Source: a virus. Taken from it: a stretch of 24,016 bases of DNA. The DNA lies in IMG/VR virus record IMGVR_UViG_3300031951_001184, positions 1 to 24,016 of that record; one strand, written 5' to 3'. This document shows, piece by piece, positions 1 through 24,016 of the stretch (within the stretch, counting starts at the first letter, position 1; each line of letters opens with the position of its first letter). The position numbers and the translations under genes were made by a program. The notes under the pieces are model-generated. The model saw only the letters and a program-made list of their open reading frames with translations. It did no database searches and was not told the DNA's origin.

Positions 1-1451
1 GGTGCTGGCGGCTCCGCTGCTTGGGCAGCAATTTGCATGGCGCCCTGCATGGTCGTTGCATCTGGCGGTCCTTCTGGGGCGGCGTCAGTTGGCGGCATTC
101 CTGGCATTCCTGGCATTCCTGGAGCACCTGGGGCACCTGGCATCCCTGGCATCCCTGGCATCCCTGGCATTCCTGGAGCACCTGGCATCTGTGCCTGCGG
201 ACCCTCTTCCATCTTCTTCTTGGTATTGGCGATGGGGGTGAGATTCGGGTTCATGAGAAGCGAGTCAGCAAGGTCGCTCTGAACATCCTTGCGTCCAGAA
301 TTAATTCTGTACTCGTTGGTACTGATGAGTCCATTCTGGAACTCATCCATGAGGTAGCGCTGGCGCTCCTGCTCGTACAGAATCAGGACTGGAACATCCG
401 ATGTATCAAAGTCAATGTAATTGTTTTCATCAAGTTCGTCAAGGGCGCGACCGAGAATTTCCAGATGCGGAAGCATTGTTTCGTTCCAGAAGACTCTGTG
501 CTCCTCTGCGGCGTTGCTGAATGTCCTGCCCGCAGCGTTGCCAATGACCGACTCTGGCACTCCGAATGAAGCAAGAATCTCCTCTTTTGTGATTTGCCGC
601 ATCTGCATGTAGGCCGCATCACGGGGAGACGCAGATGTGTCAACATAATCAACACCTTCGTCCGAAGAAATAACCGTTGTCTGACCCGTTCTGCTCAGGT
701 TTCCACGGAAACGATTCTTGATTTCCTCTTTGTCGTCCTCGTCAATTTCCCCCCTGAGGACGATTAGTCCACCAGGACGACCGTCATTCAGCAAGTAGTT
801 TCTGTTATAGACCTTTGCAAGATTCTCAATCTCTACGGCGACACCAGCGGACTCAAGAGGCGTCATTGAGAGGTACGGGTCAAGCGGGTGTGGCTTGCGA
901 ATCCAGACCACATCATCTGGCTTCATGATGATTGTTCTGCCGTCTGGCATGATGACCTCATAGCCAGCGACAAAGTTCTTTGGGTCTGGAATTGGCGCGG
1001 TGGACTGCGGTGGCAAAAGGTTCAGGGCGATAACGGTTCCGTCTCTGGAACGAATCTTCTCAATGAACGCACCTCTGGTGCTCATGAGAATCTGTGAGGA
1101 AAGCCTGTATCGGAAGATGAAGGAGTTCTCTCCTATGTTCGCTTTGGTATTGAAGATTTTCAACAGGGGGCTGTCCTTAGCCGCCTTGCCGCCAAGAATC
1201 TGCCCGTCAGGTGAGTTATCCTTGCGAAGAATGACTGGAAGCCTTGCCTGGTTTCCAGCGATGGCATCAATGCATCGCGACACCCAAGTGACCTTCTGCA
1301 TGCCCTCGCGATAAACGCGCTCAATGTCCCATGAGTCCTTGTAGCCACGGCCTGCATAGGCGGGGTTCATTGCGATGGGGGCGCCAGGACCTATTGCCGC
1401 CTTGGAAGAACCTGAGTTCAGTGACTTATTTTGATAACTATTCCAGGCCAT
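1..1451 (-). CDS. Portal protein, 3' end beyond the left edge
   Basis: The reading frame opens at ATG 1451 on the minus strand and stays open to base 1, giving more than 480 residues without a stop, so the gene is cut by the window edge. It resembles HK97-family portals, the dodecameric ring at the capsid vertex through which terminase pumps DNA. Visible family signatures are WVSRCIDAIA near residue 50, LLPPQSTAPIPD near 150, DDVVWIRKPHPLDPY near 180, and FGVPESVIGNA followed by SNAAEEHRVFWNETMLPHLE near residues 300-330. The C-terminus is unusual: after EEGPQAQ come ten X-Pro-Gly triplets, then an Ala/Pro-rich stretch. The start lies 4 bases after the stop of the upstream membrane-protein gene, so the two are probably cotranscribed leftward. 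Portal identity is by motif recognition; confidence is high. Capsid genes presumably follow to the left, outside the window. Confidence 0.9.
   Translation of the reverse strand, partial: MAWNSYQNKSLNSGSSKAAIGPGAPIAMNPAYAGRGYKDSWDIERVYREGMQKVTWVSRCIDAIAGNQARLPVILRKDNSPDGQILGGKAAKDSPLLKIFNTKANIGENSFIFRYRLSSQILMSTRGAFIEKIRSRDGTVIALNLLPPQSTAPIPDPKNFVAGYEVIMPDGRTIIMKPDDVVWIRKPHPLDPYLSMTPLESAGVAVEIENLAKVYNRNYLLNDGRPGGLIVLRGEIDEDDKEEIKNRFRGNLSRTGQTTVISSDEGVDYVDTSASPRDAAYMQMRQITKEEILASFGVPESVIGNAAGRTFSNAAEEHRVFWNETMLPHLEILGRALDELDENNYIDFDTSDVPVLILYEQERQRYLMDEFQNGLISTNEYRINSGRKDVQSDLADSLLMNPNLTPIANTKKKMEEGPQAQMPGAPGMPGMPGMPGMPGAPGAPGMPGMPGMPPTDAAPEGPPDATTMQGAMQIAAQAAEPPA
99..188 (-). repeat. Collagen-like triplet repeat (MPG/APG) in the portal tail
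   Basis: Ninety bases form ten 9-base units, each encoding Met-Pro-Gly or Ala-Pro-Gly on the minus strand, in the order M-A-M-M-M-M-A-A-M-M, followed by MPP. Units differ only at wobble positions and by the Met/Ala swap, consistent with expansion by slippage or recombination and some drift. The plus strand of the same DNA reads as Ile-Pro-Gly/Ala-Pro-Gly, because CCTGGC-type units reverse-complement to Pro-Gly codons as well. The minus reading is taken as the real one because it lies in frame inside the portal. Confidence 0.9.
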
Positions 1452-1454
1452 TTT

Positions 1455-1694
1455 TTACTCAAGCCCTAAAAGGAATCCGAATATTCCGCATGCCACACCA
1501 GCCACAATAAAACCAAGGGCAGGGTTGAATAATCCCGCGCCAATACTGGTCAACAGTATAAACGACAGCATAAAGAGGTTGGCGAATGTCTGCCTAGTAA
1601 GTATCGCTTTGATGTAGCGTTGAATGGAGACCCAAAACACGCGAAGGCGGGCTTTGGCTCTTTGCTGTAGTGATGGTTTTGGCTGCCTTGGCAT
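1455..1694 (-). CDS. Small two-helix membrane protein
   Basis: This is a 79-residue protein. Its first ~35 residues are strongly basic (MPRQPKPSLQQRAKARLRVF and beyond). Two hydrophobic segments follow: LFMLSFILLTSIGAGLF around residues 41-57, and PALGFIVAGVACGIFGFLLG around residues 58-77, ending in LE. A positive N-terminus with two helices fits a class II-like holin topology or a generic inner-membrane phage protein; sequence alone does not decide. It is the first gene of the leftward unit and stops 3 bases before the portal start. Its start codon abuts the alternative upstream start of the terminase frame (CATATG, 1692-1697). An AAGGT sequence 13 bases upstream is a weak ribosome binding site. 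Confidence 0.75.
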   Translation of the reverse strand: MPRQPKPSLQQRAKARLRVFWVSIQRYIKAILTRQTFANLFMLSFILLTSIGAGLFNPALGFIVAGVACGIFGFLLGLE

Positions 1695-1716
1695 ATGAAC
1701 AACATTACCTTATACG
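1688..1716 (+). promoter_or_regulatory. Candidate sigma70-type promoter for terminase
   Basis: TTGGCA (1688-1693) and TATACG (1711-1716) are separated by 17 bases. Transcription would begin near 1723, just upstream of the GGAGGG ribosome binding site (1730-1735) of the terminase gene. The -35 matches consensus at five of six positions and the -10 at four of six. The -35 lies inside the first codons of the divergent membrane-protein gene. No equally good minus-strand partner was found: a TTGACA (1744-1749, minus) and a TATAAG exist but are spaced too far apart. Confidence 0.4.
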
Positions 1717-1742
1717 ACGAACGGCTGTCGGAGGGCATATTT

Positions 1743-3050
1743 ATGTCAACAGATTGGAACAAAGTTTTAGAGTATCTTCAGCCGAAGATGCCTGGGTTTT
1801 GTCCAGAACAGCCATCCATAACCCAGAAGGTATTTCTAAGAACCTATGCCATTGAGGCGCTGTTCGGGGGAGCGGCTGGTGGAGGCAAGTCATCCGCTCT
1901 TCTGATGTCAGCATTGCAGTATGTGGATATTCCTGGCTATTCAGCCATTCTTTTCCGCCGCACCTTCGCTGACTTGTCGCTCCCAGGAGCACTCATGGAC
2001 CGCTTCAAGTCATGGATTGACAATTACGACGACGTTCATTGGAACGCCAACTCCTATGTTGCGACTTTCCCATCTGGGGCCAGAATCTCCTTCGGATACC
2101 TGAACAACACGAACGACTACCTCCGATACAAGGGTTCTGAGTTCCAGTTCATCGGCATGGATGAGGTCACTGAAATTCGTGAATCTGACTATAGGTACCT
2201 GTTCTCCCGACTGCGTCGCCCTGCTACTGGACCACTTTCCAAGGTTCCCCTCCGAATGAGGGCCGCATCCAACCCAGCACCCAACTGGGTGAGACAAAGA
2301 TTTATTGTTGAGGGCATTGATAATGGCAGAATTTTCGTGCCCTCCAAACTGACCGACAACCCTGGAATTGATGCCACCTCGTACCGTCAAGCCCTTTCTG
2401 CCCTTGACCCTATTGAGAGAAGAAGGCTGGAGGAGGGCGACTGGTTTGCCACCACCCTAGGGACGCTCTTTGACAGAACATCGGCAATCATCATTGACCA
2501 CTCAGAAATACCTCAGGTCCAGTCATCGGCTCGTGTTGTCCGTTTCTGGGACTTGGCGGCTACAGAGCCAAGTTATTCAAACCCCAATCCAGACTGGACT
2601 GTCGGTACATTGATGATGTTTGACCAAGGAATCGCCTACGTTTTGGATGTCAAGAAAGCCAGAGTGCGCGGCGAGAAGGTTGAGCAGTTGATTGCCCAAA
2701 CCGCCTATGAGGACGGACATGCTGTCCCCATCAGAATGGAGCAAGAACCTGGTTCTTCTGGAAAAGCCCTAGTTGACCAATACGCAAGATATGTGCTTCC
2801 TGGATACGATTTTCAGGGCATTCGCTCTACTGGGGACAAGGTCACAAGGGCTAGACCATTTTCTGCCGCGTTTGCTAATGGCAATGTCAGGGTCGCAAGG
2901 GGGGCATGGCTGACTGATTGGCTTGATGAATTTTCGTCATTTCCTGAGGCCTGTGACCACGACGACCAAGTGGACTCCGCCGTAGGAGCATTCACATATT
3001 TGGCTGGACTTGGGTTGCCACAGAGACGAGCAATCAGTATCATCGTCTAG
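1743..3050 (+). CDS. terL: Terminase large subunit (ATPase/nuclease packaging motor)
   Basis: This 435-residue protein is the phage DNA-packaging motor. The N-terminal ATPase carries Walker A FGGAAGGGKSS (residues 41-51, Lys49) and Walker B QFIGMDEVTE with Asp140 and Glu141. The C-terminal RNase H-fold nuclease shows VRFWDLAAT with Asp270 and the late acidic cluster DHDDQVD (residues 405-411). Length is normal for the family. I chose ATG 1743 because GGAGGG at 1730-1735 sits 7 bases upstream; an in-frame ATG at 1695 would add 16 residues, has no such site and overlaps the candidate promoter. No terminase small subunit was recognised nearby. The portal, usually the next gene downstream on the same strand, is instead on the opposite strand behind it. 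Confidence 0.95.
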   Translation: MSTDWNKVLEYLQPKMPGFCPEQPSITQKVFLRTYAIEALFGGAAGGGKSSALLMSALQYVDIPGYSAILFRRTFADLSLPGALMDRFKSWIDNYDDVHWNANSYVATFPSGARISFGYLNNTNDYLRYKGSEFQFIGMDEVTEIRESDYRYLFSRLRRPATGPLSKVPLRMRAASNPAPNWVRQRFIVEGIDNGRIFVPSKLTDNPGIDATSYRQALSALDPIERRRLEEGDWFATTLGTLFDRTSAIIIDHSEIPQVQSSARVVRFWDLAATEPSYSNPNPDWTVGTLMMFDQGIAYVLDVKKARVRGEKVEQLIAQTAYEDGHAVPIRMEQEPGSSGKALVDQYARYVLPGYDFQGIRSTGDKVTRARPFSAAFANGNVRVARGAWLTDWLDEFSSFPEACDHDDQVDSAVGAFTYLAGLGLPQRRAISIIV

Positions 3051-3075
3051 CAAACCCGACTTACTAGGAGAATAA

Positions 3076-3591
3076 GTGGTCCCAGACGACCTCAGAGTTG
3101 CCATTGGCGCACTCAGACAAACAATCCTTGACCTTGATGCCATGGTCTTGGAATATTCATATGCCGAGCCGACGATGGAGCATGCCTCTGAGGCACTTCT
3201 TCAACTCAATCTCGCAAAAAGGGACGTTGCCTCCGTCTACGACGGTCTTGCCGCCTTCGTGTCTCACTTGATGGAAAACTTGTCCACCAAAGACCTTGCG
3301 CTTTCCAATGGTGCCCAAATTGAGCGCAAAGTTGCTTTTGACAGAAAAGGCTGGCGTCACGCTGACCTTGCCAGGGATGTGGCGCACAGGCTTATTGAGT
3401 CTTCCGTGGATATGGACACTGGTGAGGTGTTGTTGACAAATGAAGAACTTGTCGCTAAACTCCTTGACTACGTTCAGCCCTCCTATTGGCGGGTTGGCGA
3501 ACTAAATAAAATCGGCATCAACGCCGATAATTACTGCGAAACTGGCGAAGCAAAAGCCAGCCTTGTTGTTAGAAAAGGAGAAAACCAATGA
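3076..3591 (+). CDS. Unknown protein of the recombination block
   Basis: I do not recognise this 171-residue protein. It starts at GTG 3076, supported by AGGAG (3066-3070) 5 bases upstream. The N-terminal half looks alpha-helical with many Leu and Ala residues (for instance ALLQLNLAKRDVASVYDGL). The C-terminal half contains DRKGWRHADLARDVAHRLIE and a conserved-looking end, YWRVGELNKIGINADNYCE. It overlaps the Rad52-like gene by 4 bases (ATGA), so translation is probably coupled and a role in the same DNA annealing process is plausible. That role is inferred from position only. Confidence 0.75.
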   Translation: MVPDDLRVAIGALRQTILDLDAMVLEYSYAEPTMEHASEALLQLNLAKRDVASVYDGLAAFVSHLMENLSTKDLALSNGAQIERKVAFDRKGWRHADLARDVAHRLIESSVDMDTGEVLLTNEELVAKLLDYVQPSYWRVGELNKIGINADNYCETGEAKASLVVRKGENQ

Positions 3592-4256
3592 GTGATATTT
3601 ACAAGCAGTTTGCCGAACCCTTCCCCAAGGAAGTTGAGCGTCAACTCAAGAAAGGTGGGGCGTACCTCACCTACATTCCCGTCAGCGAGGTCATCACCAG
3701 ACTCAACAAGGTTGTTGGCGTTGGTCGCTGGAACTTCCAAATCAACAAGTGCGAGCGTGACGCTCTTGACCCTGATTTCATCGTCGCCCATGTGACCCTT
3801 GAGGCAATCATTGAGAATCCCGCTGGTCAGAACGTCCTCGTCAAGCGAGACGGTATCGGTGGGCAGAAAATCAAGCGCACTAAGCAGGACGACATTGTTG
3901 ACCTCGGTGACGAGATGAAGGGCGCCGTGTCCGACGCACTCAAGAAAGCAGCACAGACTCTTGGCATTGGCCTCTACCTCGCTCGCACCGAAGAGGCGAT
4001 GGAATACGATGTGGTTGAGGAGGCTCCTCAGGTTGCTCCGAAGATTTCCCAGTTGTGGGAACAGTTTGTTTCCCTCAGCAAGTCTCTCAGCGCAGACCAG
4101 CGCAATGAGTTGAACTCTTTCTGGACCAACTGGTCTGGTGGTGCCCCCAAGCCCACGAAGACCACGGCAACGGAAGAACAACTTGATGCTCTCATCACAC
4201 AGTGCGTCGCTCTTTCGCTAAACGCCACTGTTGTGGATGAAGATGCCGATTCATAA
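3588..4256 (+). CDS. Rad52/Rad22-like single-strand annealing protein
   Basis: This 222-residue protein resembles the Rad52_Rad22 group of phage recombinases, which anneal complementary single strands. The N-terminus (YKQFAEPFPKEVERQLKKGG then TYIPVSEVITRLNKVVG, residues ~4-46) and the segment GDEMKGAVSDALKKAAQTLGIG with LYLAR around residues 105-132 match the family pattern of a beta-sheet core followed by a helix ending in a Leu-Gly turn. The last ~80 residues are variable and likely mediate partner binding. AAGGAG (3575-3580) lies 7 bases before the ATG. The gene overlaps the next one, a Cas4/RecB-type nuclease, which could supply the resected strands. Confidence 0.85.
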   Translation: MSDIYKQFAEPFPKEVERQLKKGGAYLTYIPVSEVITRLNKVVGVGRWNFQINKCERDALDPDFIVAHVTLEAIIENPAGQNVLVKRDGIGGQKIKRTKQDDIVDLGDEMKGAVSDALKKAAQTLGIGLYLARTEEAMEYDVVEEAPQVAPKISQLWEQFVSLSKSLSADQRNELNSFWTNWSGGAPKPTKTTATEEQLDALITQCVALSLNATVVDEDADS

Positions 4257-5007
4257 TCCGCCTCCTCATCTCTCTGCATCATCCATAGGCACTTTCAACC
4301 AGTGTCCGCTGAAATTCAAGTTCAGCAAAATTGATGGGATAACTGACGACCCAACAGAGGCAACCCTGATGGGAAACTTCGTCCATGACATCATGGAGGA
4401 GTTCTATCGTCACGACCCAGAACTGAGGGATATTGCCCTTGCTCGCACTCTTGCTTCCAAGATTTGGGAAGAAAAGTGGCGAGATGAGGTAACCCCATGG
4501 GTGAAGGGCGACAAGCAACTGCACATGTTCCGATGGAACTCGTGGTGGTGCGTGGAGAACCTGTGGAAACTTGAAGACCCCATGAGTATCTCACCGACTG
4601 GACTTGAGCGAGAAGTGAATGGTCTGGTTGGCGGAGTAAAAATCAAGGGGTTCATAGACAGGTTTGTCGTCAATAATGGGAAGATAACCATCTCCGACTA
4701 CAAGACTGGCAAGGTGCCCAAGCCTCAGTATGCAGGCGAGAAGTTCTTCCAGTTGAACCTGTATGCCCATCTCTTGCGCTCGGAAGGCGTTGGTGAACCC
4801 GAAGAAGTTGAACTCCTGTTCCTGAAAGAGGGCAAGCGGCTTAGGGACAAGGTCACCGAAAAAAGCCTCACCAGTGCCGAGCAACTTGTTGTGTCAACAA
4901 AAGAACAGATTGACGTTTGCTGTGAAACTGGCGAGTTTGAGCCAATAAAGTCAATTCTGTGTAACTGGTGCTCTTATCAATCAATCTGTCCAGCGTGGAG
5001 AAAGTGA
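4237..5007 (+). CDS. Cas4/RecB-type PD-(D/E)XK exonuclease with Fe-S cysteines
   Basis: From ATG 4237 this 256-residue protein shows the full PD-(D/E)XK order: MGNFVHDIMEEFY with His50, GFIDRF with Asp141, SDYKTGK with Asp154 and Lys156, and QLNLYAH with Gln172 and Tyr176. Four cysteines, one N-terminal (Cys23, FNQCPLKF) and three C-terminal (Cys242, Cys245, Cys251 in CNWCSYQSIC), match the iron-sulphur arrangement of Cas4 and AddB-type nucleases. The expected activity is 5'- or 3'-end resection of DNA. Adjacent Rad52-like and RuvC-like genes support a recombination role; no cas1 or cas2 is present, so this is not a CRISPR adaptation gene here. The start lies inside the Rad52-like gene; TTG 4231 and ATG 4243 are in-frame alternatives and none has a clear ribosome binding site. 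Confidence 0.88.
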   Translation: MKMPIHNPPPHLSASSIGTFNQCPLKFKFSKIDGITDDPTEATLMGNFVHDIMEEFYRHDPELRDIALARTLASKIWEEKWRDEVTPWVKGDKQLHMFRWNSWWCVENLWKLEDPMSISPTGLEREVNGLVGGVKIKGFIDRFVVNNGKITISDYKTGKVPKPQYAGEKFFQLNLYAHLLRSEGVGEPEEVELLFLKEGKRLRDKVTEKSLTSAEQLVVSTKEQIDVCCETGEFEPIKSILCNWCSYQSICPAWRK

Positions 5008-5513
5008 TGATTACCGACGACGTTTTTGCTCGGATGGTCGCAGAAGAGGTGAAAAATCGCCTCTCGCCCAACCAAAAAATAATCCTGATGGAGCCAGAAA
5101 ACTGGGGCAGGTGGAAGACCGCCCTTACCTATTTGGTAGAAAACCTGGAAGAGCAGATTGACAACATCAAGGCCGACGCAATCAACGATGCCGAGCGTTA
5201 TCAGAAAATGGGCCATCACGGCAAGAAGTTGCTTGTTGAGTCAGAAAAGGCTTACAAACTCAAAATCACCAAGGTGGAGCGCTTTCTATTTCATGTCCAG
5301 CGTCGTCTTGATGATGTCGTTTCAATGATTGAGACTGGCGAAGTGGCCAAGTCAGACGGCTGGCAGGAAGTCTCGTTTCTCAAGAGGGCAATAACAAAAC
5401 ACCGCGCCATGCTTAGGGACTACGACCTTGAGGAAACGGCTATTGATAGGTCTCTCTGGGATGCCCTTGACAACAGGTGGACTTTTGACGACATTGACCC
5501 TGGGAGCATCTAA
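5007..5513 (+). CDS. Unknown helical protein
   Basis: This is a 168-residue protein of unrecognised family. ATG 5007 overlaps the nuclease stop codon by one base and has GGAG (4997-5000) 6 bases upstream, which decides the start over an in-frame upstream TTG/ATG. The sequence is rich in charged helical stretches, such as WKTALTYLVENLEEQIDNIK and LLVESEKAYKLKITKVERFL, suggesting coiled coils. There is no signal peptide, cysteine cluster or nucleotide-binding motif. It lies between the Cas4-like nuclease and the HNH gene in one tightly packed unit, so an accessory role in DNA processing is inferred only from location. Confidence 0.75.
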   Translation: MITDDVFARMVAEEVKNRLSPNQKIILMEPENWGRWKTALTYLVENLEEQIDNIKADAINDAERYQKMGHHGKKLLVESEKAYKLKITKVERFLFHVQRRLDDVVSMIETGEVAKSDGWQEVSFLKRAITKHRAMLRDYDLEETAIDRSLWDALDNRWTFDDIDPGSI

Positions 5514-5514
5514 A

Positions 5515-5814
5515 TTGCGCCACAGGTCAAAGAAGAAGGAAGCGGAGTACAGGCTACGCCGACCGCTGGTTGAGAGGCTTCTCAGCGAAAACCCAATGTG
5601 CCAAGCCTGTCCAGTGTTCGCTGAACATGATGGTGTGGCCACCTACACGCGCAAGCGTTCAGTAGATGTTCACGAGATAGTGAGACGCTCTCAGGGTGGC
5701 TCTATCCTTGATGAGAACAATCTCATGTGCGTCTGTCGTGACTGCCATAGGCGGATTGGAAACTATCCGCAACTGGCTTTTGAACTAGGCCTAGCGAAGC
5801 ATAACTGGCAATAA
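5515..5814 (+). CDS. Small HNH endonuclease
   Basis: I place the start at TTG 5515, one base after the previous stop, because GGGAG (5502-5506) sits 8 bases upstream; this gives 99 residues beginning MRHRSKKK. The zinc and catalytic residues are all visible: Cys29 and Cys32 (MCQAC), HE at 53-54 (VDVHEIV), NN at 68-69, then Cys74, Cys77 and His78 (CRDCHRR). Short free-standing HNH proteins of phages either nick DNA at the packaging step with terminase or act as homing nucleases. Here the gene is the last of the terminase-led operon, about 2.5 kb from terL, which permits but does not prove a packaging role. Confidence 0.85.
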   Translation: MRHRSKKKEAEYRLRRPLVERLLSENPMCQACPVFAEHDGVATYTRKRSVDVHEIVRRSQGGSILDENNLMCVCRDCHRRIGNYPQLAFELGLAKHNWQ

Positions 5815-5824
5815 TTTGGGCAAC

Positions 5825-5850
5825 AAAAAAGCGCCCCCGAAGGGACGCTT
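5825..5850 (-). terminator. Rho-independent terminator with UUCG loop (minus strand)
   Basis: Read on the minus strand, AAGCGTCCC and GGGGCGCTT pair with one mismatch around a TTCG loop closed by C-G, and six T residues follow at once (5825-5830). This is a textbook intrinsic terminator for the minus-strand gene ending at 5872. On the plus strand the same hairpin follows the HNH stop by 14 bases but lacks an adjacent T-run, so any termination of the rightward unit would be weaker. Confidence 0.85.
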
Positions 5851-5855
5851 CTCTG

Positions 5856-5870
5856 CAGTTTTGAAAACTG
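5856..5870. repeat. Perfect inverted repeat next to the terminator
   Basis: CAGTTTT and AAAACTG form 7-base arms around a single G. It lies between the stop codon of the minus-strand gene (5872) and the main terminator hairpin. With a one-base spacer it is more likely a protein-binding palindrome, or part of an extended terminator region, than a stable RNA hairpin. Confidence 0.5.
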
Positions 5871-6308: not shown

Positions 6309-6854
6309 ATGAGCAACATCAACATCATCGCCCTGGACCTATCCCTGACCTCAAGTGGGGTTAGTTTCGGTTCACAACTCAACCTCATTACGACCAACAA
6401 ACGTGGTGCAGAAAGACTGTTTCATATCTCCTCAGAGATTATGAAACTTGTTGTTGCCCAAAACATCACCCACGCTGTTATTGAGGGCTACTCATTTGCC
6501 TCTCGCAATAGTCAAGCCCACAGTATTGGGGAACTTGGTGGTTGCGTCAGAATGAGGCTCTGGGAAAACGGCATCCCATATGTGGAGGTACCGCCAACAT
6601 CAAGGGCAAAGTTTGCAACTGGCAAGGGGAACGCCTCTAAGGGAGAAGTTATTTCTGCCATATCTGCCAAAACTGGAATTGTCTTTGCTGGCTCTGGGGG
6701 GAACGACATGTGCGATGCATGGGTTCTGATGGAAATGGCCCAAGCCAGGCTCGGACTGTCCGAATGGTCATGGTCAAAAACCCAACTGGAAGCACTGGAC
6801 AAAGTTGACTGGTCCCCGCTAGAATCGGGGACCACTACAACAAACGGAGAATAA
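6309..6854 (+). CDS. RuvC-like Holliday junction resolvase
   Basis: This 181-residue protein has an RNase H-like fold of the RuvC group. Catalytic acids are visible in the expected order: Asp10 in IIALDLSLTSSG, Glu59 in AVIEGYSF, and Asp133 and Asp136 in GGNDMCDAWVL. The segment SRAKFATGKGNASK (residues 99-111) is the basic DNA-contacting region typical of phage members. It would cut branched DNA from recombination or replication before packaging. It leads a new operon starting after the divergent promoter region. A clear ribosome binding site is missing. The C-terminal ~30 residues are low in conserved features. Confidence 0.88.
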   Translation: MSNINIIALDLSLTSSGVSFGSQLNLITTNKRGAERLFHISSEIMKLVVAQNITHAVIEGYSFASRNSQAHSIGELGGCVRMRLWENGIPYVEVPPTSRAKFATGKGNASKGEVISAISAKTGIVFAGSGGNDMCDAWVLMEMAQARLGLSEWSWSKTQLEALDKVDWSPLESGTTTTNGE

Positions 6855-6855: not shown

Positions 6856-7203
6856 TTGATTTCCAGGAATGCTCCAATTAGTCAAGTTGACATTGAGCAC
6901 GAATTGCTCCGACTGATTGACGAACTTGAGGAAGAGACTGAGGCTTTTGAGAAGTTGGCTGAAGATGCCTCCAAGAAAGAGTCTCTCTACAAGTCCAACT
7001 GGGCAAAGGAGTACCTGTCAGCCAAGGGTTCAATCAAAGAGCGCGAGGCATGGGCCGACTACAAGATGGCTGACGAGAACTTTGACTACAAAATTTCAGA
7101 AGCACTTGTCAAGGCAAAACGCGAGAAACTGCTTTCTCTGCGAACTGCCATTGATGCCATGCGAACACTGAACGCCAATGTGAGAGTACAGGTGAATAAT
7201 TGA
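6856..7203 (+). CDS. Small coiled-coil protein
   Basis: A TTG start at 6856, one base past the resolvase stop, is supported by GGAG (6846-6849) 6 bases upstream. The 115-residue product is highly charged and helical throughout: HELLRLIDELEEETEAFEKL, then a middle with YLSAKGSIKEREAWADY, then AKREKLLSLRTAIDAMRTLN and ANVRVQ at the end. Similar small helical proteins ending in a Leu-Arg-x-x-Ile/Leu-x-x-Leu pattern often sit beside phage recombinases, but I cannot assign a function. It overlaps the ParB-like gene by 4 bases. Confidence 0.75.
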   Translation: MISRNAPISQVDIEHELLRLIDELEEETEAFEKLAEDASKKESLYKSNWAKEYLSAKGSIKEREAWADYKMADENFDYKISEALVKAKREKLLSLRTAIDAMRTLNANVRVQVNN

Positions 7204-8003
7204 AACACAATGTTGCGCAGGCACTTGAGGGATTGCTGGTTCCAATTGAAACCCTTATCCCACTTGAGAACAATCCTCGTCGTGGCGACATAGGCGCGAT
7301 TATGGCCTCCTATGCAGAGTTTGGTCAGGTGAAGCCGATTGTCGTGCGCCCCAATGAAGACGGCACATCAACTGTTATTGCTGGTAACCACCAACTAGAG
7401 GCAGCCAGGCGTCTTGGGTGGAGCCACATTGCCGCCGTCGGCTATGAAGTGGACGACAGCAGGGCTATTGCTTTTGCTCTTGCTGACAACCGCACGATGG
7501 AACTTGGACACACTGAGGCATCAGCACTCAATGAGATGTTGGTTGAGGTGGCGGATATTTATCCAGAGTTGTTTGAAGGTCTTGGCTGGGATGAATTTGA
7601 AATTGCCGAGATGGAAGAGCAGGTTGAGCGAAAGACCTGGAACGACGAGCAGACATCGTCCTACACGACCCCAGTGATTCAACCCATCATCAATGCTGCC
7701 GCAGAAATGGCTGGTAGGGCAATATCCGCCCTGGTTAGCGAAGATGAGGATGGTGAACTGCGCATCAATGCCCCTAAGGATGCTGACCATCGGGAAATCG
7801 CCACACAGGGCAGCACTGTCACTCAGGGCGGTGCGGCAACTGCTCCACAGGCGGTTGTTCAATACACAATCGTGTTTGACAACCCTCAACAGCAGCGTCG
7901 TTGGTATGAATTCATCAAGTGGCTTCGTAACGACCCAGCGGTTGCTGGGAACACGGTTGCGGAGAAATTGATTGACTTCATTGACCAACACATAGAGGTC
8001 TAG
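7200..8003 (+). CDS. ParB/sulfiredoxin-fold protein, IbrB-like
   Basis: This 267-residue protein starts at TTG 7200, overlapping the previous stop (TTGA) with AGGTGA just upstream. Residues ~10-100 form a ParB N-terminal domain: VPIETLIPLENNPRRGD, GQVKPIVVRP, and the signature GNHQLEAARRLGW with Gly62, Asn63 and His64. This fold binds nucleotide (CTP in true ParB) and in some relatives acts as a nuclease or sulfiredoxin. A flexible middle follows, then a C-terminal domain with VQYTIVFDNPQQQRRWYEF, possibly for dimer formation. No ParA partner exists, so plasmid partition is unlikely. The direct neighbour is a PAPS-reductase-like gene, the same pairing as bacterial IbrB/IbrA. Confidence 0.85.
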   Translation: MKHNVAQALEGLLVPIETLIPLENNPRRGDIGAIMASYAEFGQVKPIVVRPNEDGTSTVIAGNHQLEAARRLGWSHIAAVGYEVDDSRAIAFALADNRTMELGHTEASALNEMLVEVADIYPELFEGLGWDEFEIAEMEEQVERKTWNDEQTSSYTTPVIQPIINAAAEMAGRAISALVSEDEDGELRINAPKDADHREIATQGSTVTQGGAATAPQAVVQYTIVFDNPQQQRRWYEFIKWLRNDPAVAGNTVAEKLIDFIDQHIEV

Positions 8004-8005
8004 TA

Positions 8006-13618: not shown

Positions 13619-14092
13619 ATGGCAAAAGTATCCCAGAGACAGGTCCTTGCGACAATTGACCCAGTGACCACTGGGGCCCCAAAGTGGAATGAGTTCCGCT
13701 TTGCCCAGGTGTCAGGTGGAGAAATCACCGCGTCTGTGGAGAAAATCTACGAGGGTGGTGCTCAGTTCCCGACGGTGCTGTGCGCCCCATACGAGATTGG
13801 CGACATCACGCTAACCGCCCACTTTGACGATGACGTAACTCCGTCTGATGACTACAATGGTATTGCCTACAAACTGCGTCTACTCCGCGACAGAGTTGGC
13901 AAGGCCTACTACAACATCACGGTTGCTACATACGACTGTGACCTCAAGGTGAACGGCAACGACCGCATCTACAGCAACTGCCTCCTGGTTGGCCTGACCG
14001 AGCCAGACGGCGACTCTTCATCGGGTGCCCCAGCGACGTTTGCTCTGACCTTCTCGGTCCAGAACGTCACTGGTCCTAGCACCAACGCCTGA
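13619..14092 (+). CDS. Tail tube protein
   Basis: This 157-residue protein lies directly after the sheath, the usual place of the inner tube subunit. It is beta-rich: WNEFRFAQVSGGEITASVEK, then LCAPYEIGDITLTAHFD, YNITVATYDCDLKVNGN and TFALTFSVQNVTGP. That is the tube fold that stacks as hexameric rings. Length matches contractile tail tubes. AGGAG (13604-13608) overlaps the sheath stop and sits 10 bases before ATG 13619. No frameshift or truncation is seen. Confidence 0.9.
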   Translation: MAKVSQRQVLATIDPVTTGAPKWNEFRFAQVSGGEITASVEKIYEGGAQFPTVLCAPYEIGDITLTAHFDDDVTPSDDYNGIAYKLRLLRDRVGKAYYNITVATYDCDLKVNGNDRIYSNCLLVGLTEPDGDSSSGAPATFALTFSVQNVTGPSTNA

Positions 14093-14876: not shown

Positions 14877-17800
14877 ATGGCTGACGAAAAAGTCACAATC
14901 AAGATTGAAGTCAACTCTGACGTTCGTGGCGCAAAAAGAGTCAATCGGGAACTCAAAGAAATTGCCCGCACTGCCGACCGCATCAATGCCCATTCTGGCA
15001 TGCGGAGCAGTACAAAAAACCTCACTGGAATGCTCAATGGGCAGCAAGTGGTCTGGAAGAAGCACTTTGATGAACTTGACAAGTTGACCAAGATGTTCGG
15101 CAAGGGCATGCAAATGGGCATGAAACTTGCCACCAAAGCCGTTATTGCCGAACTAGCGATTCTCAGCGTCTCGCTCGTTGGTATCCATGGACTGTTTGCC
15201 GCTGGTCAGGGGATAATGAAAGCCTACCGATGGGCCCTTGATGCCACTGGCGCTGCGGCTACTGGACTTGTTTTTGCCTTGTCAACAGTTGCTGCTGCAT
15301 TGAGAGAACAACAGGCGGCAATGTACGCCTACAAGACCAATACTCTTCCGCAGTTCGGCTCTGGGCTGAACCAGACGAGAGTTCTGATGAGGGCTCTTAG
15401 TTCCGACAGTGAGATGGCTTTCATCGGTGTTGAGAATCTCAACAAGGCATTTGCTGCAGTATCCAAGAACTCAACATGGACCGCAAATAGTCAGCAACTC
15501 CTTAGAGGACTCATGGACTTTGCGGCTGCTGGTCAGCCACTTGAGCAAGGTGTTGAGAAGGCTGGAGAACTCATCGGCTTGCTCCAGGACACCAAGTCAT
15601 CCTGGGGTTCTATCAAGAAAGCAGCCGAAGCATCAAGCCCTGCAATGAAAAAGGCTCTTGAAGAAGCCAAGAAGCAGGGAATCAATACAAGAGAAGAACT
15701 CATCAATGCCATCAATAGCGGCCAGTTGTCTTCGCTAGGTGGAGTGAGTGGTCAGTTTGACGCCGTGAGCGGAACCCTCATTAACCAACTCAAGGGGTAC
15801 TTCAACATTGTTCGCGGAAGATTTGCTGACCTTGGACAGCAGTTTCTTGCGCCAGTCAAAGAGGCCATGAGCGAGTTGATGAACATCTTCAATAGAATGT
15901 TCATCAGAACAATCCCAGCCCTCTCCAAGAGGGGAATCAACTCGTTCACTGATGGAATTGTCAATGTTGCAGAAAAGATAGAAAGACTCTATTCAAAAAT
16001 TATCTACCAATACACTGAAAGAACTGAGGGAGTTTTTGAGGGCATTTCCAAATGGTGGGCAAAGTTCAGACAGGGATGGGAAGACACAAAAGAAGCCCTA
16101 AGACCGTTTATTGAGGGTGCTCGCGTCATTGAGGACGCCCTAAAGGCGGCGTTCCAGCCCATCAAGGAGACTGTCTCTGGAAAGTTTGGCGACTTCAATG
16201 AATGGCTTCAGGAGAACAGGGGGGAAGTCGTTGAGTTTGGCGACAAGATGGGCAAACTTGTTTCTGCGATATTGAAACTTTTTGGGGAAATTGGCAAACT
16301 TTATAGAACCCTTCTGCCGTTCATTAACAGACTCGTTGACGGACTTACACAGGTAGTTAACCTGACATCCAGCATGTTTGGCATGTTTAGTGGCATGGGG
16401 CAATTTGGCGGTCTATTTGCCCTACTTGGAATGCGTCAACTTGGAGGAAAGTTGGCTGGCACCAGAGGTGGATTTATAGGTGTGGGTGCTGGCGCTGCTG
16501 GTTCTGCACCTGCTGGAAGTTATGGACCATATGGTTCAAACTTCGCCACAATGCAGCAACAGGCAGCACAAAGACAAGGCATGGGGGTAAGAAGCGGTGG
16601 CCTGAGGAGCAGCACTGGCGCTGCCGCTGCCGCTGGCACTGCTGGTCGTGGTGGTTTTAGAGGATTCATGTCAAATGTCGGTACAAGATTCGGCAACTAT
16701 GCATCACAGCAGTTCGGCCCCATGGACATGGCTGAGTACAGGAGAATAGAGAAAGGGGCGCAACAGCCGACTGCATTTCAAAGAAGCAGCACCATGCAGG
16801 CCCTAAGAAGGGCAAGATACAGAAACCAGGGGCTTCAAAAATTCCAGCAAAGCGGTGGAGCAAAACTGGGAGTCGGCATGGGACTTGGAATGCTGAGTGC
16901 CGTCGCTCCAGCCGAGATGCAGGGTGCCCTTGCGCTCGGCGGCATGGCTGCCCAAATCAATCCGATGCTTGGTTTGGCAGTCGGCGGCCTTGGTGCCGCC
17001 ATGAATGCCCAGGGTGGCTTGAGTGGAGCGCTGGCTGGCGCTGGCGGTGGAGCCGCACTCGGTGCCATGGTTGGAGGACCAGTTGGGGCAATGGTCGGAG
17101 CCGCTCTTGGTGGCATTGCTGGAGCAATTAGGGGCTGGACCAATAAGAGCAAAACACAAGCAAAAATGGCCAGGAAAGCAGTTACTGATACCCTAACAAG
17201 CATTACTACTGGTGCTGCAGAGTTTGCTATTGCCGAACTGATGGCTGGCCCAGGGAGGGGTGCTAACCCAATCAGGGAAGCACTGCAAAAACAAAAGTCG
17301 CAAGCACAGTCATTCGGAGATGTTGTTCGTTCTGGAATGGGAAACAGGGCGCAAAACAAAGAACTATTGCAGGACCTTTTTGACAATCAACTAACGCTTG
17401 GCATCAAAATCACTGAGAGCCAATTGAAAGACATGATGGAAAAGCCAGATACCGCAGTATCTGAGTACATCAAGCAGACCAATGCCCAGATGGGTGCAAG
17501 CGAAATTGTCATGGACTCTTTCAATACCAAAATGCAGTTCTTGCAGAATTACACTGGTCAAACAGAAGACCAAATTCTTGCGCTAGCAAAGACCATGGGA
17601 GTAAATCTCCTTGACGGAACCCAGACAGCGATGGAAGCCCTTGAGGAAATGGGCAAATTGCAAGTCAAGACAGCGGAACAAATGAAAAACGTCTTCACAG
17701 AGGCATACGCATCTGCTGAAGGCGTGTTTGACAAAATCATCAAGCAAAAAGAAGCACCTAAAATTCTTGATGAAATGGCGAAAGCATTGTCTGGCAAACT

Positions 17801-18872
17801 TCAGCGTGGTGGTGGAGAGAAACAAATTCTAGATTTCTTCAAAGAGTCAATGCCAGCATTGATAGCCCAATTTGGTAGTGGCGACCTTGCCATGGCTCAA
17901 CTAGTTACGAGTTTTTTTGGTCCAAATGCAACCGCATTCCAGAAGGGCGGACCATTTGAGGGAATGCAAGGGCAATTTGCTTCTGTTCAAGATGAACTTA
18001 TGCTTGTTATAAAAGAATTTGCTGGCGGAGCAGTTCCAGGCATCATTGACCAGATACAAAATACCCTTCCAGAAGGAAGGCAGTTGGGTGATGTTGGCGG
18101 CCTAACGACTGCACTAACTAGTCTTCTGTCAACCAATCCAGAGTTGTTTGCACAAATTACAACTGGTTCCGTTAACCAATTTGGTGGCGACCCACTAAAG
18201 TTCTTTCAAAATTTTGGCGTTGGACTCACAACAGTGGCCACAGAAGATACTACCCGTGACAATTTAGATGAACTTCCAACTGAACTCAAGACACAATATG
18301 AAGCGCTGGTCAAAGAGTTTGACAAAGTATTTGCAAAATATACAGAAAAACCAGACTGGATGACTGATAAGTTTATTAAATTTGTTGATGAAAACAACGA
18401 TACGGCAACCCCTCGCGGCGCTGGCATTGGGGACACAACATCCTCGCGCCTAGCAGTAACAATGAACCGTCACTCAGTAATGGACGACATGTTGACTGGC
18501 AAGAGAAATGTTACTTCTGCATGGAGAAACTGGGGACTCGGCTCCATGAACTCTGACCATGTGACGGGAAGGGCCTATGACCTAACTGGGCAGAACCTTG
18601 GGGGATATCAGCAACTTGTTCAGAGCACTGGTGGATTTGCGGAGTTCCATGGGACTAACGCCAGTAGGCATCTCCACGTCGTTCCAGGCCCAGTTGGTGA
18701 CACAGCCGTTCCAGCCATGACAACTCCAGGACCAATGATGGCCACTGGCGGGTCAACCTACAATAACTACAATTTTACTGTGTCCAGCAATTCATCCGAC
18801 CCAGAAGTGGTTGCTAATGTCGTGATGCGAAAGATTGAAGAAACACAAAGGGACAAGAGGGAACGCAAGTGA
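14877..18872 (+). CDS. Tape measure protein with C-terminal M15 DD-peptidase motif
   Basis: At 1331 residues it is the longest gene, as expected of the tail-length ruler. ATG 14877 has GGAG (14868-14871) 5 bases upstream. Regions in order: a charged N-terminal helical part (1-80), hydrophobic segments (~88-145), long amphipathic helices (~150-500), Gly-rich low-complexity stretches (~510-560), a Gly/Ala-rich hydrophobic zone (~660-755) that could cross a membrane, helical repeats (~770-1180), and a C-terminal domain at ~1195-1275. That domain has SDHVTGRAYDL (1226-1236), Glu1256 in FAEFHG and HLHV (1265-1268), the SxHxxGxAxD...HxH zinc set of M15 D-Ala-D-Ala peptidases. At about 0.15 nm per residue the tail would be near 200 nm. 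The end overlaps the next gene by 4 bases. Confidence 0.93.
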   Translation: MADEKVTIKIEVNSDVRGAKRVNRELKEIARTADRINAHSGMRSSTKNLTGMLNGQQVVWKKHFDELDKLTKMFGKGMQMGMKLATKAVIAELAILSVSLVGIHGLFAAGQGIMKAYRWALDATGAAATGLVFALSTVAAALREQQAAMYAYKTNTLPQFGSGLNQTRVLMRALSSDSEMAFIGVENLNKAFAAVSKNSTWTANSQQLLRGLMDFAAAGQPLEQGVEKAGELIGLLQDTKSSWGSIKKAAEASSPAMKKALEEAKKQGINTREELINAINSGQLSSLGGVSGQFDAVSGTLINQLKGYFNIVRGRFADLGQQFLAPVKEAMSELMNIFNRMFIRTIPALSKRGINSFTDGIVNVAEKIERLYSKIIYQYTERTEGVFEGISKWWAKFRQGWEDTKEALRPFIEGARVIEDALKAAFQPIKETVSGKFGDFNEWLQENRGEVVEFGDKMGKLVSAILKLFGEIGKLYRTLLPFINRLVDGLTQVVNLTSSMFGMFSGMGQFGGLFALLGMRQLGGKLAGTRGGFIGVGAGAAGSAPAGSYGPYGSNFATMQQQAAQRQGMGVRSGGLRSSTGAAAAAGTAGRGGFRGFMSNVGTRFGNYASQQFGPMDMAEYRRIEKGAQQPTAFQRSSTMQALRRARYRNQGLQKFQQSGGAKLGVGMGLGMLSAVAPAEMQGALALGGMAAQINPMLGLAVGGLGAAMNAQGGLSGALAGAGGGAALGAMVGGPVGAMVGAALGGIAGAIRGWTNKSKTQAKMARKAVTDTLTSITTGAAEFAIAELMAGPGRGANPIREALQKQKSQAQSFGDVVRSGMGNRAQNKELLQDLFDNQLTLGIKITESQLKDMMEKPDTAVSEYIKQTNAQMGASEIVMDSFNTKMQFLQNYTGQTEDQILALAKTMGVNLLDGTQTAMEALEEMGKLQVKTAEQMKNVFTEAYASAEGVFDKIIKQKEAPKILDEMAKALSGKLQRGGGEKQILDFFKESMPALIAQFGSGDLAMAQLVTSFFGPNATAFQKGGPFEGMQGQFASVQDELMLVIKEFAGGAVPGIIDQIQNTLPEGRQLGDVGGLTTALTSLLSTNPELFAQITTGSVNQFGGDPLKFFQNFGVGLTTVATEDTTRDNLDELPTELKTQYEALVKEFDKVFAKYTEKPDWMTDKFIKFVDENNDTATPRGAGIGDTTSSRLAVTMNRHSVMDDMLTGKRNVTSAWRNWGLGSMNSDHVTGRAYDLTGQNLGGYQQLVQSTGGFAEFHGTNASRHLHVVPGPVGDTAVPAMTTPGPMMATGGSTYNNYNFTVSSNSSDPEVVANVVMRKIEETQRDKRERK

Positions 18873-20296: not shown

Positions 20297-20302
20297 TCAG
20301 CC

Positions 20303-21850: not shown

Positions 21851-21851
21851 C

Positions 21852-22439: not shown

Positions 22440-22464
22440 GTCAATGATGTGGGAGAATGTTTAG

Positions 22465-22782
22465 ATGGACACCATAAAGTTTCCGATTTCTTTTGATTCC
22501 ACTGGTTTCAATAAACTTGAAGAAGGAACATACGATTATTACAGACAACTATTGACAATTGCCCTGCTCACTGAGCCTGGGGACAATCCTTTGACCCCAG
22601 ACTTTGGTGTTGCCGACCCTGCATTCAATGGCCTTGACGGCGGGTTGTTTATCTACAATGCTGCAAGATTTGTTCCAGAAGTCAATGTTAGGGACGTATC
22701 CTCAAGTGTTAACGAAAAGACTGGCAAATACTCTGTAAAATTCACTTTTGACATACGAGAGGTCGCAGACGATGCCAATTGA
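22465..22782 (+). CDS. Baseplate wedge protein, gp25/gpW-like
   Basis: This 105-residue protein has GGGAG (22451-22455) 9 bases before ATG 22465. It matches the size and layout of gp25-like wedge proteins, which resemble sheath C-termini and start sheath polymerisation at the baseplate: a helix EEGTYDYYRQLLTIALLTEP, then the characteristic GDNPLTPDFGVADPAF, and a C-terminal strand pair NEKTGKYSVKFTFDI. The usual EPR-like motif is here represented by TEPGDN. It overlaps the gpJ-like gene by 11 bases. Confidence 0.82.
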   Translation: MDTIKFPISFDSTGFNKLEEGTYDYYRQLLTIALLTEPGDNPLTPDFGVADPAFNGLDGGLFIYNAARFVPEVNVRDVSSSVNEKTGKYSVKFTFDIREVADDAN

Positions 22783-23971
22783 TTATTCTGACTACATTGA
22801 CCTCACGGTCTTTAATGAGGCTCCATCGGATATTTATCTAGAATCCCTTGAGTATGCCCGTCTGTTGATGCCAGAACTGACTATTCGTCAGGGCACGCCA
22901 GAGGATGCAATTCTTCAGGCATGTGCATATATTGGCTCTGCGAACCTGAGTGCCATCAATTCATTGCCCAACAGACTGATGAGTGGTGTTCTCAATCTTC
23001 TTGGCGTACCAAGAAATGAAGGGGAATTCCCACTCATTGAGGTTGAATTCACTGCCGCCACTCACGATGGAGCAGTTATTGAGGCTGGAACTCTCTTGAG
23101 ATACGACTTTAACCTTTTGGAGCCGCCAATAACCGTATATTTTGAGACTACGGAAGAGTTGCAGATTGCAGCAATAACAAATACTGGCAATACCCCCCTT
23201 CCGACTGGAATAGTTGAGGCAAGGGGTACAGAGGCTCTTGTTCTTCTTCCAGTAGATAACGGTTCTCTTCTTGCCATTGAATCTACTAATGCTGACATTT
23301 ATACGGCCACTATTGACTCAACAACAGAACAGGGAATTGAGCCAGAATCTGATGACGAGTATCTGAACCGTGCATCAACGTACATAGGCTCTTTGTCTTC
23401 ATCGTTTGGTAAGGCTTCACAGATTGAGGCGTTTATTCTGTCCACGTTTCCAGCAGTCAGTAGGGTAAAGGTTTATGACCTGACAGACCATACTGGTGGC
23501 CTTGACTTTGCCGACGCTGCCGAACCTGGACATATCACCATCTTCGTTTATGGCCGTGGAGCAACTTTGTCTTCCGCAGTCAAGTACGAGATTCTTACAG
23601 AAGTTGCCGATAGGGCAATCGCTGGCTTAACTATTGGTGTTCTTGATGTCGTGCTAGCAGATTTGGACGCCACCATTGATGCCGTCTATGACCCAGCATT
23701 TGACCCGCTCATTGTTGAAGAAAATATCAAGGAAGCGGTTGATGTTGCAGTTAATGCTTCTTCATATTCCTTCACTGACAAACTGCGCAGAAACTCCCTC
23801 ATTCCAGTAATTAGTGACGTACCTGGAGTGCTATTTGTCTCGTCAATTACGCTGAGTAATAACGATGCTAACTCCACAATAGTCAGCGGTGAAGCGGAGT
23901 TTGCACAGAAAGGCACTCTTCCAGAAATTGCATCTGTAAACATAACGGTCAACCTAACTGTCAATCAGTAG
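22772..23971 (+). CDS. Baseplate J-like wedge protein (gp47/gpJ family)
   Basis: ATG 22772 gives 399 residues and has GAGAGG about 9 bases upstream; an in-frame TTG at 22748 is less likely. Family features are the N-terminal helix region with RQGTPEDAILQACAYIGSAN, the strand-rich ring domain PLIEVEFTAATHDGAVIEAG with TLLRYDF, a central GIEPESDDEYLNRASTYIGS with SLSSSFGKASQIEAFILSTF, and DVVLADLDATIDAVYDPAFD near the end. These proteins pair with gp6/gp53-like partners to make the wedge that triggers sheath contraction. The gene is complete, ending at TAG 23969-23971. Confidence 0.88.
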   Translation: MPIDYSDYIDLTVFNEAPSDIYLESLEYARLLMPELTIRQGTPEDAILQACAYIGSANLSAINSLPNRLMSGVLNLLGVPRNEGEFPLIEVEFTAATHDGAVIEAGTLLRYDFNLLEPPITVYFETTEELQIAAITNTGNTPLPTGIVEARGTEALVLLPVDNGSLLAIESTNADIYTATIDSTTEQGIEPESDDEYLNRASTYIGSLSSSFGKASQIEAFILSTFPAVSRVKVYDLTDHTGGLDFADAAEPGHITIFVYGRGATLSSAVKYEILTEVADRAIAGLTIGVLDVVLADLDATIDAVYDPAFDPLIVEENIKEAVDVAVNASSYSFTDKLRRNSLIPVISDVPGVLFVSSITLSNNDANSTIVSGEAEFAQKGTLPEIASVNITVNLTVNQ

Positions 23972-23973
23972 CC

Positions 23974-24016
23974 ATGGCCAGGACGCTCCAGAGACTCACA
24001 GAGCGACAGGCTCTCT
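23974..24016 (+). CDS. Start of the next gene, cut by the right edge
   Basis: An ATG two bases after the gpJ-like stop opens a frame reading MARTLQRLTERQAL to the window end. Tight spacing and unchanged strand suggest a further baseplate or tail fibre gene in the same operon. Only 14 residues are visible, so neither family nor start is certain. Confidence 0.45.
   Translation, partial: MARTLQRLTERQAL

What the first reader, a model, noticed from the sequence alone, without database searches (positions are those of the whole stretch)
1..24016. Apparent complete absence of GATC, AGCT, TCGA and CCGG
Reading all 24 kb by eye I found no copy of these four palindromes, although about 94 of each would be expected at equal base frequencies. 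Other four-base palindromes (GGCC, GCGC, CGCG, CATG, GTAC, ACGT, TGCA, CTAG, TTAA, AATT) are present. Codon choice shows the effect. Glu or Lys before a CTN Leu codon ends in A (GAA-CTT, AAA-CTC), or Leu becomes TTG. Codons before GAN end in T (GTT-GAG, ATT-GAC, TTT-GAC). Gly after Thr or Ala follows ACT or GCT, never ACC or GCC. Asp before C-starting codons is GAC. This affects all gene types and both strands. It suggests long selection by several four-base restriction systems, and such a signature could help identify the host.
Basis: partly seen in the sequence, partly recalled or inferred. Interest (0 to 1): 0.75.

Follow-up and report, generated by a model that had tools for sequence, protein, structure and literature searches.

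The report
Phage purged of four DNA words
A virus that probably infects actinobacteria has lost every copy of four short DNA words that bacterial restriction enzymes can cut, and its relatives have lost different sets of such words, as if each recorded the defences of its own hosts.

Summary
An 84,372-base contig that contains the window's sequence with one mismatch also has none of the four, against about 1,315 expected. Codon shuffling gives z of -9.5 to -12.3.

Among 186 sequences of the family, six palindromes (these four, ACGT, GGCC) are lost in 19 different sets, counting 'none lost'. Exact zeros: GATC 101/182, AGCT 110/183, TCGA 36/183, CCGG 16/155, ACGT 13/169, GGCC 3/172. The other ten four-base palindromes never reach zero, nor do non-palindromic tetramers (0 of 42,467 tests). 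One relative lacks five words over 70 kb; another lacks CCWGG and 21 six-base palindromes.

Best explanation: selection by host Type II restriction enzymes, escaped mostly by synonymous site loss. Mutation bias, artefact and a phage-encoded enzyme fit poorly. WhiB genes suggest actinobacterial hosts, but no host strain or cognate enzyme was found, and seven published actinobacterial drafts had none. Site avoidance is known; this is an extreme, combinatorial variant.

The parts
1..24016 (.). Region free of GATC, AGCT, TCGA and CCGG; matches bases 38,752-62,767 of an 84,372-base contig with one mismatch, and that contig is also free of all four
1695..3050 (+). terminase large subunit, used as family marker
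   Evidence: PHROG 979 E 1.8e-107; Pfam Terminase_6C
3588..4256 (+). Rad52/Erf-like single-strand annealing protein
   Evidence: Pfam PF04098 E 3e-11
4231..5007 (+). PD-(D/E)XK exonuclease, Cas4-like; present in avoiding and non-avoiding relatives (18 of 20 records)
5428..5814 (+). HNH endonuclease; 15 of 20 records, including the non-avoider G005
6309..6854 (+). RuvC-like resolvase
   Evidence: PHROG 159 E 6.5e-37
7200..8003 (+). ParB-N domain protein, neighbour of the PAPS-reductase-like gene; it also matches the ParB part of some methyltransferase profiles (PHROG 498, residues 13-148; PADLOC MTase_II, residues 15-111)
8006..9160 (+). PAPS-reductase-like protein with a weak, partial DndC match; in 15 of 20 records, including the non-avoider G005
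11747..12142 (+). small protein just upstream of the tail sheath; its family is in the 3 TCGA-free and none of 17 other records, and the similar G018_2 family is in 8 of 8 AGCT-free and 0 of 12 other records
   Evidence: no PHROG match
12142..13605 (+). contractile tail sheath
   Evidence: PHROG 23 E 4.7e-39
13619..14092 (+). tail tube
   Evidence: PHROG 5102 E 7.5e-21
14877..18872 (+). tail tape measure
   Evidence: PHROG 4070 E 5.5e-7
22748..23971 (+). baseplate wedge subunit
   Evidence: PHROG 6 E 7.5e-23

Best explanation
The window belongs to a contractile-tailed phage that probably infects actinobacteria. Its host populations carry, or long carried, several Type II restriction systems that cut GATC, AGCT, TCGA and CCGG. 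The phage seems to have no methyltransferase of its own to protect these sites, and survives by having none of them. A mutation that creates a site would be cut in a restricting host, so the count stays at exactly zero while proteins are kept by choosing other codons. Sister lineages meet hosts with other enzyme sets, so each word is lost or kept separately. SHOWN: exact zeros, complete loss confined to palindromes among tetramers, word-by-word differences on the family tree, mostly synonymous loss, no methyltransferase of three Pfam families in the phage records searched. INFERRED: that host restriction enzymes (or a methylation-dependent variant) are the selecting agent, and the host group.
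For: Zero of ~1,315 expected sites over 84 kb. Codon-shuffle z -9.5 to -12.3. Across 186 sequences six palindromes reach exact zero and ten never do; non-palindromic tetramers reach zero in 0 of 42,467 locus-words. State changes on a 175-row terminase tree: at least 11 (GATC), 6, 6, 5, 4 and 2, against means of 48.2, 48.9, 27.3, 16.0, 13.5 and 3.0 with shuffled labels, so the trait is inherited yet changes repeatedly (for GGCC, with 3 absent rows, this says little). At homologous sites of a relative G001 keeps 0 of 34-144 per word and comparison, while palindromes it does not avoid are kept in 4-35%; single-base losses are mostly synonymous third-position changes (three comparisons). No PF00145 or PF02086 methyltransferase in 32 of 32 records and no PF01555 in 25 of 25. 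WhiB in 16 of 41 phage records. AGCT loss goes with a variant of a small gene in the tail module, 8/8 vs 0/12, as expected if it tracks host type. Restriction-site elimination is an established phage strategy (PMC6286503, Discussion part 1 and passages).
Against: No host strain or cognate restriction gene was found. Of 296 genomes sampled from the phylum of an Acidimicrobiia bin, 6 have a DpnII-type enzyme, at loci of 28-43% G+C with no tie to these phages. PMC6329791 reports zero methylated motifs and zero methyltransferases for its seven Lake Biwa actinobacterial drafts (incomplete drafts; table passage). The one relative in a bin labelled actinobacterial (L125) avoids nothing. Intermediate counts exist (rows left out: TCGA 42, GGCC 48, ACGT 28, CCGG 23 of at most 175), so all-or-none is clean mainly for GATC (7) and AGCT (3). 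The phage records may be fragments, so a missing methyltransferase may lie outside them. The tail-gene association may be common descent rather than host type.
Confidence: 0.8

Rival explanations
1. The phage avoids host methylation rather than cutting: resident methyltransferases mark these palindromes and a methylation-dependent nuclease or other sensor acts on marked DNA.
For: It would leave the same signature. PMC6286503 reports the Type IIM site GATC under-represented in all 46 phages whose hosts encode such enzymes.
Against: The same paper finds avoidance mostly for orthodox Type II sites and attributes the weak methylation-dependent signal to them. It would need separate methyltransferases for each word.
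Confidence: 0.1
2. The phage carries its own enzyme that destroys host DNA at these words and avoids them in its own genome.
For: Nuclease-like genes (HNH, PD-(D/E)XK) are in the window.
Against: Those two occur in the non-avoider G005 as well as in avoiders. Among the top genes printed for each word (at most 8 distinct presence patterns; recognised by eye, not all annotated) I saw no nuclease or methyltransferase; the best AGCT and TCGA associations are small tail-module genes. That test used 20 records, some of them fragments, with only one CCGG-free and only two GATC-containing ones, so it is weak for those words.
Confidence: 0.03
3. Mutation bias, such as deamination of methylated cytosines, erased the words without selection.
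For: Transition products are enriched: TTGA/TCAA 453 vs 291, CTGG/CCAG 370 vs 228, AACT/AGTT 294 vs 199.
Against: GATC deamination products are not enriched (201 vs 218). The commonest single-base loss of GATC is T-to-C (28 of 70 against G002, 7 of 23 against G005), and Asp before C is GAC 250 / GAT 0. Mutation alone would not be expected to keep exact zeros over 84 kb.
Confidence: 0.02
4. Artefact of libraries made with restriction enzymes, or of assembly.
For: The sequences are metagenome contigs.
Against: Contigs of five other datasets (L002, L003, L278, L279, L282) repeat parts of the window at 99.96-100% identity. Of ten metagenomes that I picked because they hold several relatives, all ten hold relatives with different patterns, and in nine the sets of exactly absent words differ. 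Codon choice and homologous comparison show real evolution.
Confidence: 0.01
5. GATC loss serves escape from methyl-directed mismatch repair, as discussed for phiX174.
For: phiX174 is devoid of GATC (PMC5014478, passages seen).
Against: It cannot explain AGCT, TCGA, CCGG and ACGT. From recalled general knowledge, Dam/MutH repair is not an actinobacterial trait.
Confidence: 0.02

Closest known systems
Restriction-site (palindrome) avoidance in lytic dsDNA phages (Rusinov et al. 2018, PMC6286503; Discussion part 1 and passages read)
   Same: Loss of Type II recognition palindromes, near-complete in some genomes, interpreted as anti-restriction.
   Different: There, eliminated sites (ratio <0.1) are 3.9% of the experimental dataset and hosts are known. 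Here four, and in G791 five, words reach exact zero together over 84 and 70 kb, and the set differs from relative to relative. The hosts are unknown.
GATC-free phiX174 (PMC5014478, abstract and passages seen)
   Same: No GATC at all.
   Different: A 5.4-kb genome and one word, discussed with mismatch repair in E. coli; not applicable to the other words.
Isolated actinophages of freshwater 'Ca. Planktophila' (PMC10202952, part 1 of 2 of the text read)
   Same: Phages with a whiB-like gene; one carries an ArdA-like anti-restriction gene, and restriction enzymes are said to be present in the host genome.
   Different: 39-kb phages; site avoidance is not discussed in the part read. I did not obtain those genomes for counting.

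Membership tests
Restriction-site avoidance by lytic phage | Recognition words depleted beyond composition and codon usage | tested here: met
Restriction-site avoidance by lytic phage | Complete loss specific to palindromes | tested here: met
   tetramers: 0 of 42,467 non-palindromic locus-words at zero; six palindromes at zero. Hexamers in G805: 21 of 52 palindromes against 40 of 3,786 others
Restriction-site avoidance by lytic phage | Loss by changes that keep the proteins | tested here: met
   mostly synonymous third-position losses
Restriction-site avoidance by lytic phage | Host encodes enzymes with these specificities | tested here: inconclusive
   host not identified; DpnII-type enzyme in 6 of 296 phylum genomes, not linked; seven published actinobacterial drafts without methyltransferases
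Restriction-site avoidance by lytic phage | No phage methyltransferase that would make avoidance needless | tested here: met
   0 of 32 (PF00145), 0 of 32 (PF02086), 0 of 25 (PF01555) records, some perhaps fragments; a motif scan of 29 records left four ORFs not followed up; modification of virion DNA itself not testable here
Restriction-site avoidance by lytic phage | Strictly lytic life style | not tested
   no search for integrases or lysogeny genes was made
Self-avoidance of a phage-encoded nuclease | Nuclease gene present exactly in avoiders | tested here: not met
   HNH and exonuclease genes also in the non-avoider G005 (20 records; weak for GATC and CCGG)
Actinophage | Actinobacteria-specific gene (WhiB) | tested here: met
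   16 of 41 phage records; among 14 control genomes WhiB rang only in Corynebacterium; G001 match E 1.3e-14

The most novel reading that the evidence does not exclude
One widespread actinophage family carries a readable on/off record of host palindrome-targeting defences. Its lineages switch up to six four-base words; the lineage of G805 has almost eliminated AGCT (1 of 208), all CCWGG (0 of 124) and 21 six-base palindromes, while other hexamers with the same cores stay at full number. So many precise specificities could mean that the hosts use an unrecognised, readily re-programmed palindrome-recognising defence rather than dozens of ordinary restriction-modification systems.
Probability: 0.1. 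Interest if true: 0.85.

Novelty: new variant of a known kind. Interest (0 to 1): 0.62.

Why it matters
If right, the genomes of uncultured phages list the restriction specificities that their uncultured hosts use over evolutionary time. The 19 sets of lost words offer a natural experiment on how phages lose and regain hundreds of sites, and a testable key for linking phages to hosts by methylation motifs. The G805 lineage suggests far more restriction pressure on actinobacterial phages than the few methyltransferases reported from host drafts would predict.

Tried and rejected
Phage methyltransferases: none found with PF01555 (25 records), PF00145 or PF02086 (32 records each). A motif scan of 29 records left four NPPY/DPPY/NPPF-containing ORFs, notably an 877-residue one in G792, not followed up. 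The ParB-like gene matches methyltransferase profiles only over its ParB part.

Phosphorothioate idea (ParB plus a PAPS-reductase-like gene with a weak DndC match): rejected as cause, because the pair is in avoiders and in the non-avoider G005.

Host search: terminase relatives in species genomes gave 5 loci, in bins labelled Phycisphaerae, Gammaproteobacteria (two contigs of one bin), Acidimicrobiia and 'bacterium', so bin labels are unreliable. Searches at E<=1e-60 gave 3 of 397 genomes in the order of the Acidimicrobiia bin and 4 of 396 in its phylum, the bin itself counted in both, so no enrichment. DpnII and C5-methylase searches of 296 genomes say little about specificity.

Sample types: no call states where the IMG/VR contigs were sampled. 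In my notes I called the L122/G805 clade 'marine', and I thought of most of the family as freshwater; the first rests on the ETNP label of L122's bin, the second is recalled from dataset numbers. The report does not rely on either.

Literature: nothing on multi-word elimination in this family in nine searches (open-licence PMC only; listings and abstract starts seen). Absence there is not proof.

One search counts 186 sequences including the window; it dropped L001 and the duplicate contigs L235, L236, L237, L240 and L277, and did not include L125 and L126 (counted: L125 avoids none; L126 has GATC 3 of 12, others ordinary). Near-identical contigs (e.g. L190/L191, L245/L246, L059/L060, L075/L077, L259/L263) were kept as separate rows, so counts of loci are not counts of independent events; one search gives the changes on the tree. 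One search left out 11 sequences without a long enough terminase, and the intermediate rows. The association test used 20 of the 29 records fetched in full. The header line lists all palindromes but its first columns are GATC, AGCT, TCGA, CCGG.
Full report
WHAT WAS CLAIMED AND WHAT IS THERE. Exact counting confirms zero for all four; the 12 other four-base palindromes are present 22-122 times. Dinucleotide-based expectations are 103, 104, 82 and 63. Shuffling synonymous codons in 25 ORFs gives 74, 99, 102 and 63 for GATC, AGCT, TCGA and CCGG, z -9.5 to -12.3. TTAA, TATA, ACGT and GGCC are lowered but present in the same test.

CONTEXT. The window is a virus record of 24,016 bases. It matches bases 38,752-62,767 of an 84,372-base IMG/VR contig, G001, with one mismatch. 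G001 has 0 of 384, 355, 321 and 255 expected GATC, AGCT, TCGA and CCGG. Genes in the window are those of a contractile-tailed phage: terminase, recombination genes, ParB-like and PAPS-reductase-like genes, sheath, tube, tape measure and baseplate. G001 also encodes a WhiB protein, a weakly proteasome-like protein, a B12-type ribonucleotide reductase and a LexA-type DNA-binding domain. WhiB is found in 6 of 16 and 10 of 25 phage records of the family. Among 14 control genomes it rang only in Corynebacterium, so the hosts are most likely actinobacteria. The best-ranked GenBank phages by terminase are Gordonia phages at 41% identity, but 1,550 records of many hosts match at under 60%.

THE FAMILY PATTERN. 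Four capped scans of viral contigs and one of species genomes gave 186 sequences, the window included, after removing duplicates. Where at least 15 sites are expected, exact zeros are: GATC 101 of 182, AGCT 110 of 183, TCGA 36 of 183, CCGG 16 of 155, ACGT 13 of 169, GGCC 3 of 172. The other ten four-base palindromes never reach zero. Non-palindromic tetramers reach zero in 0 of 42,467 locus-words. Nineteen different sets of lost words occur, the empty set included, 14 of 186 sequences having that one. Whole records confirm it: G002 lacks AGCT and TCGA but keeps 238 GATC and 274 CCGG; G010 (160 kb) lacks only GATC, 0 of 585; G005 lacks none. G791 (69,936 bases) lacks five words: GATC 0/234, AGCT 0/275, TCGA 0/240, CCGG 0/143, ACGT 0/213. 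On a tree of 175 terminases the minimum number of changes is 11, 6, 6, 5, 4 and 2 for GATC, AGCT, TCGA, CCGG, ACGT and GGCC, against means of 48.2, 48.9, 27.3, 16.0, 13.5 and 3.0 with shuffled labels. The trait is inherited in clades yet gained or lost repeatedly; GGCC, with three absent rows, says little. Terminases differing cleanly in a word are at most 76-78% identical at the DNA level (first 84 loci). Intermediate values exist, chiefly for TCGA and GGCC. In G017 the 26 remaining TCGA sites are scattered along the record; CTCGA is 0 of 49 and TCGAG 1 of 46.

HOW THE SITES WERE LOST. At homologous codons where a relative has a site, G001 keeps 0 of 51 and 136 (GATC), 0 of 98 (AGCT), 0 of 49 and 79 (TCGA), and 0 of 68, 144 and 34 (CCGG), while the palindromes it does not avoid are kept in 4-35%. 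Single-base losses are mostly synonymous, at third codon positions. The commonest single-base loss of GATC is T-to-C, 28 of 70 against G002. Before C, Asp is GAC 250 times and GAT never. Transition products of TCGA, CCGG and AGCT are enriched but the deamination products of GATC are not. Deamination alone is therefore an unlikely cause for GATC, and selection with transition-biased mutation fits all four.

ARTEFACT. Contigs of five other datasets repeat parts of the window at 99.96-100% identity. Ten metagenomes that I picked each contain relatives with different patterns; in nine of them the sets of exactly absent words differ. A library or assembly effect would not do this.

MECHANISM. No methyltransferase of Pfam families PF00145 or PF02086 is in 32 of 32 records searched, nor PF01555 in 25 of 25. 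Among 20 records I saw no nuclease or methyltransferase among the genes best associated with avoidance, judged by eye; the HNH and exonuclease genes of the window also occur in the non-avoider G005. The best AGCT association is a small gene of the tail module, 8 of 8 versus 0 of 12. This is what host-driven selection predicts, although shared descent could also cause it. The most likely mechanism is cutting by host Type II restriction enzymes. Methylation-dependent restriction would leave the same mark and cannot be separated here.

AGAINST. The hosts are not identified. Relatives found in genome bins lie in bins with conflicting labels, and the one labelled actinobacterial avoids nothing. Searches of the order and phylum of that bin show no enrichment of terminase relatives. 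A Lake Biwa methylome study lists zero methylated motifs and zero methyltransferases for its seven actinobacterial drafts; the same study reports GATC and AGCT methylation in a thaumarchaeon (PMC6329791, passages and tables seen). Those drafts are incomplete, but this is a real tension with the explanation. The phage records may also be fragments.

THE G805 CLADE. G805 (67,432 bases; its clade includes L122 from a bin of the ETNP series) has AGCT 1 of 208 expected and CCWGG 0 of 124, while CCSGG is 129 of 129. It lacks 21 of 52 testable six-base palindromes (8 or more expected each), against 40 of 3,786 non-palindromic hexamers; of the 12 of those 40 that were printed, eight contain CCAGG or CCTGG. 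Hexamers such as GGATCC, AGATCT, TCCGGA and AACGTT are at or above expectation. Pooled over 358,405 bases of other members of the clade, CACGTG is 0 of 70, GACGTC 0 of 92 and CGTACG 0 of 39. G808 also has CCWGG 0 of 127. The pressure there seems wider still.

KNOWN OR NEW. Restriction-site avoidance is long known. In a survey of almost 4,000 viruses, eliminated sites are 3.9% of the experimental dataset (PMC6286503). New here are the number of words at exact zero in one genome, the switching by word within one family, and the hexamer set of G805. My literature searches (listed under Tried and rejected) found no report of this, within open-licence PMC papers only.

Noticed in passing
L190 / G805 and relatives L122-L124, L182-L208: Besides AGCT (1 of 208), CCWGG (0 of 124) and 21 of 52 testable six-base palindromes are missing in G805, while other hexamers with the same core are at full number.
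   Followed up: partly
G001 whole record: Five further hexamers are at zero in the 84-kb record that contains the window's sequence: AACGTT, CCGCGG, CGGCCG, GACGTC, TTTAAA.
   Followed up: partly
G002: GATC is at 238 of 331 but TGATCA is 0 of 30 and CGATCG 0 of 14, suggesting six-base specificities in place of the four-base one.
   Followed up: no
G017, G015, G016: TCGA is partly lost; the remaining sites are scattered and almost never flanked as CTCGA/TCGAG, perhaps a word caught during purging or relaxation.
   Followed up: partly
window 7200-9160: ParB-domain gene next to a PAPS-reductase-like gene with a weak DndC match; the pair is in 15 of 20 records. Function unknown.
   Followed up: partly
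G792: An 877-residue ORF with an ENPPY motif could be a methyltransferase in a phage lacking four words; no match to PF00145 or PF02086 was found in that record.
   Followed up: no
window 1-1694: No clear + strand gene at the left end; in G001 a large minus-strand ORF (38106-40202) overlaps the matching stretch.
   Followed up: no
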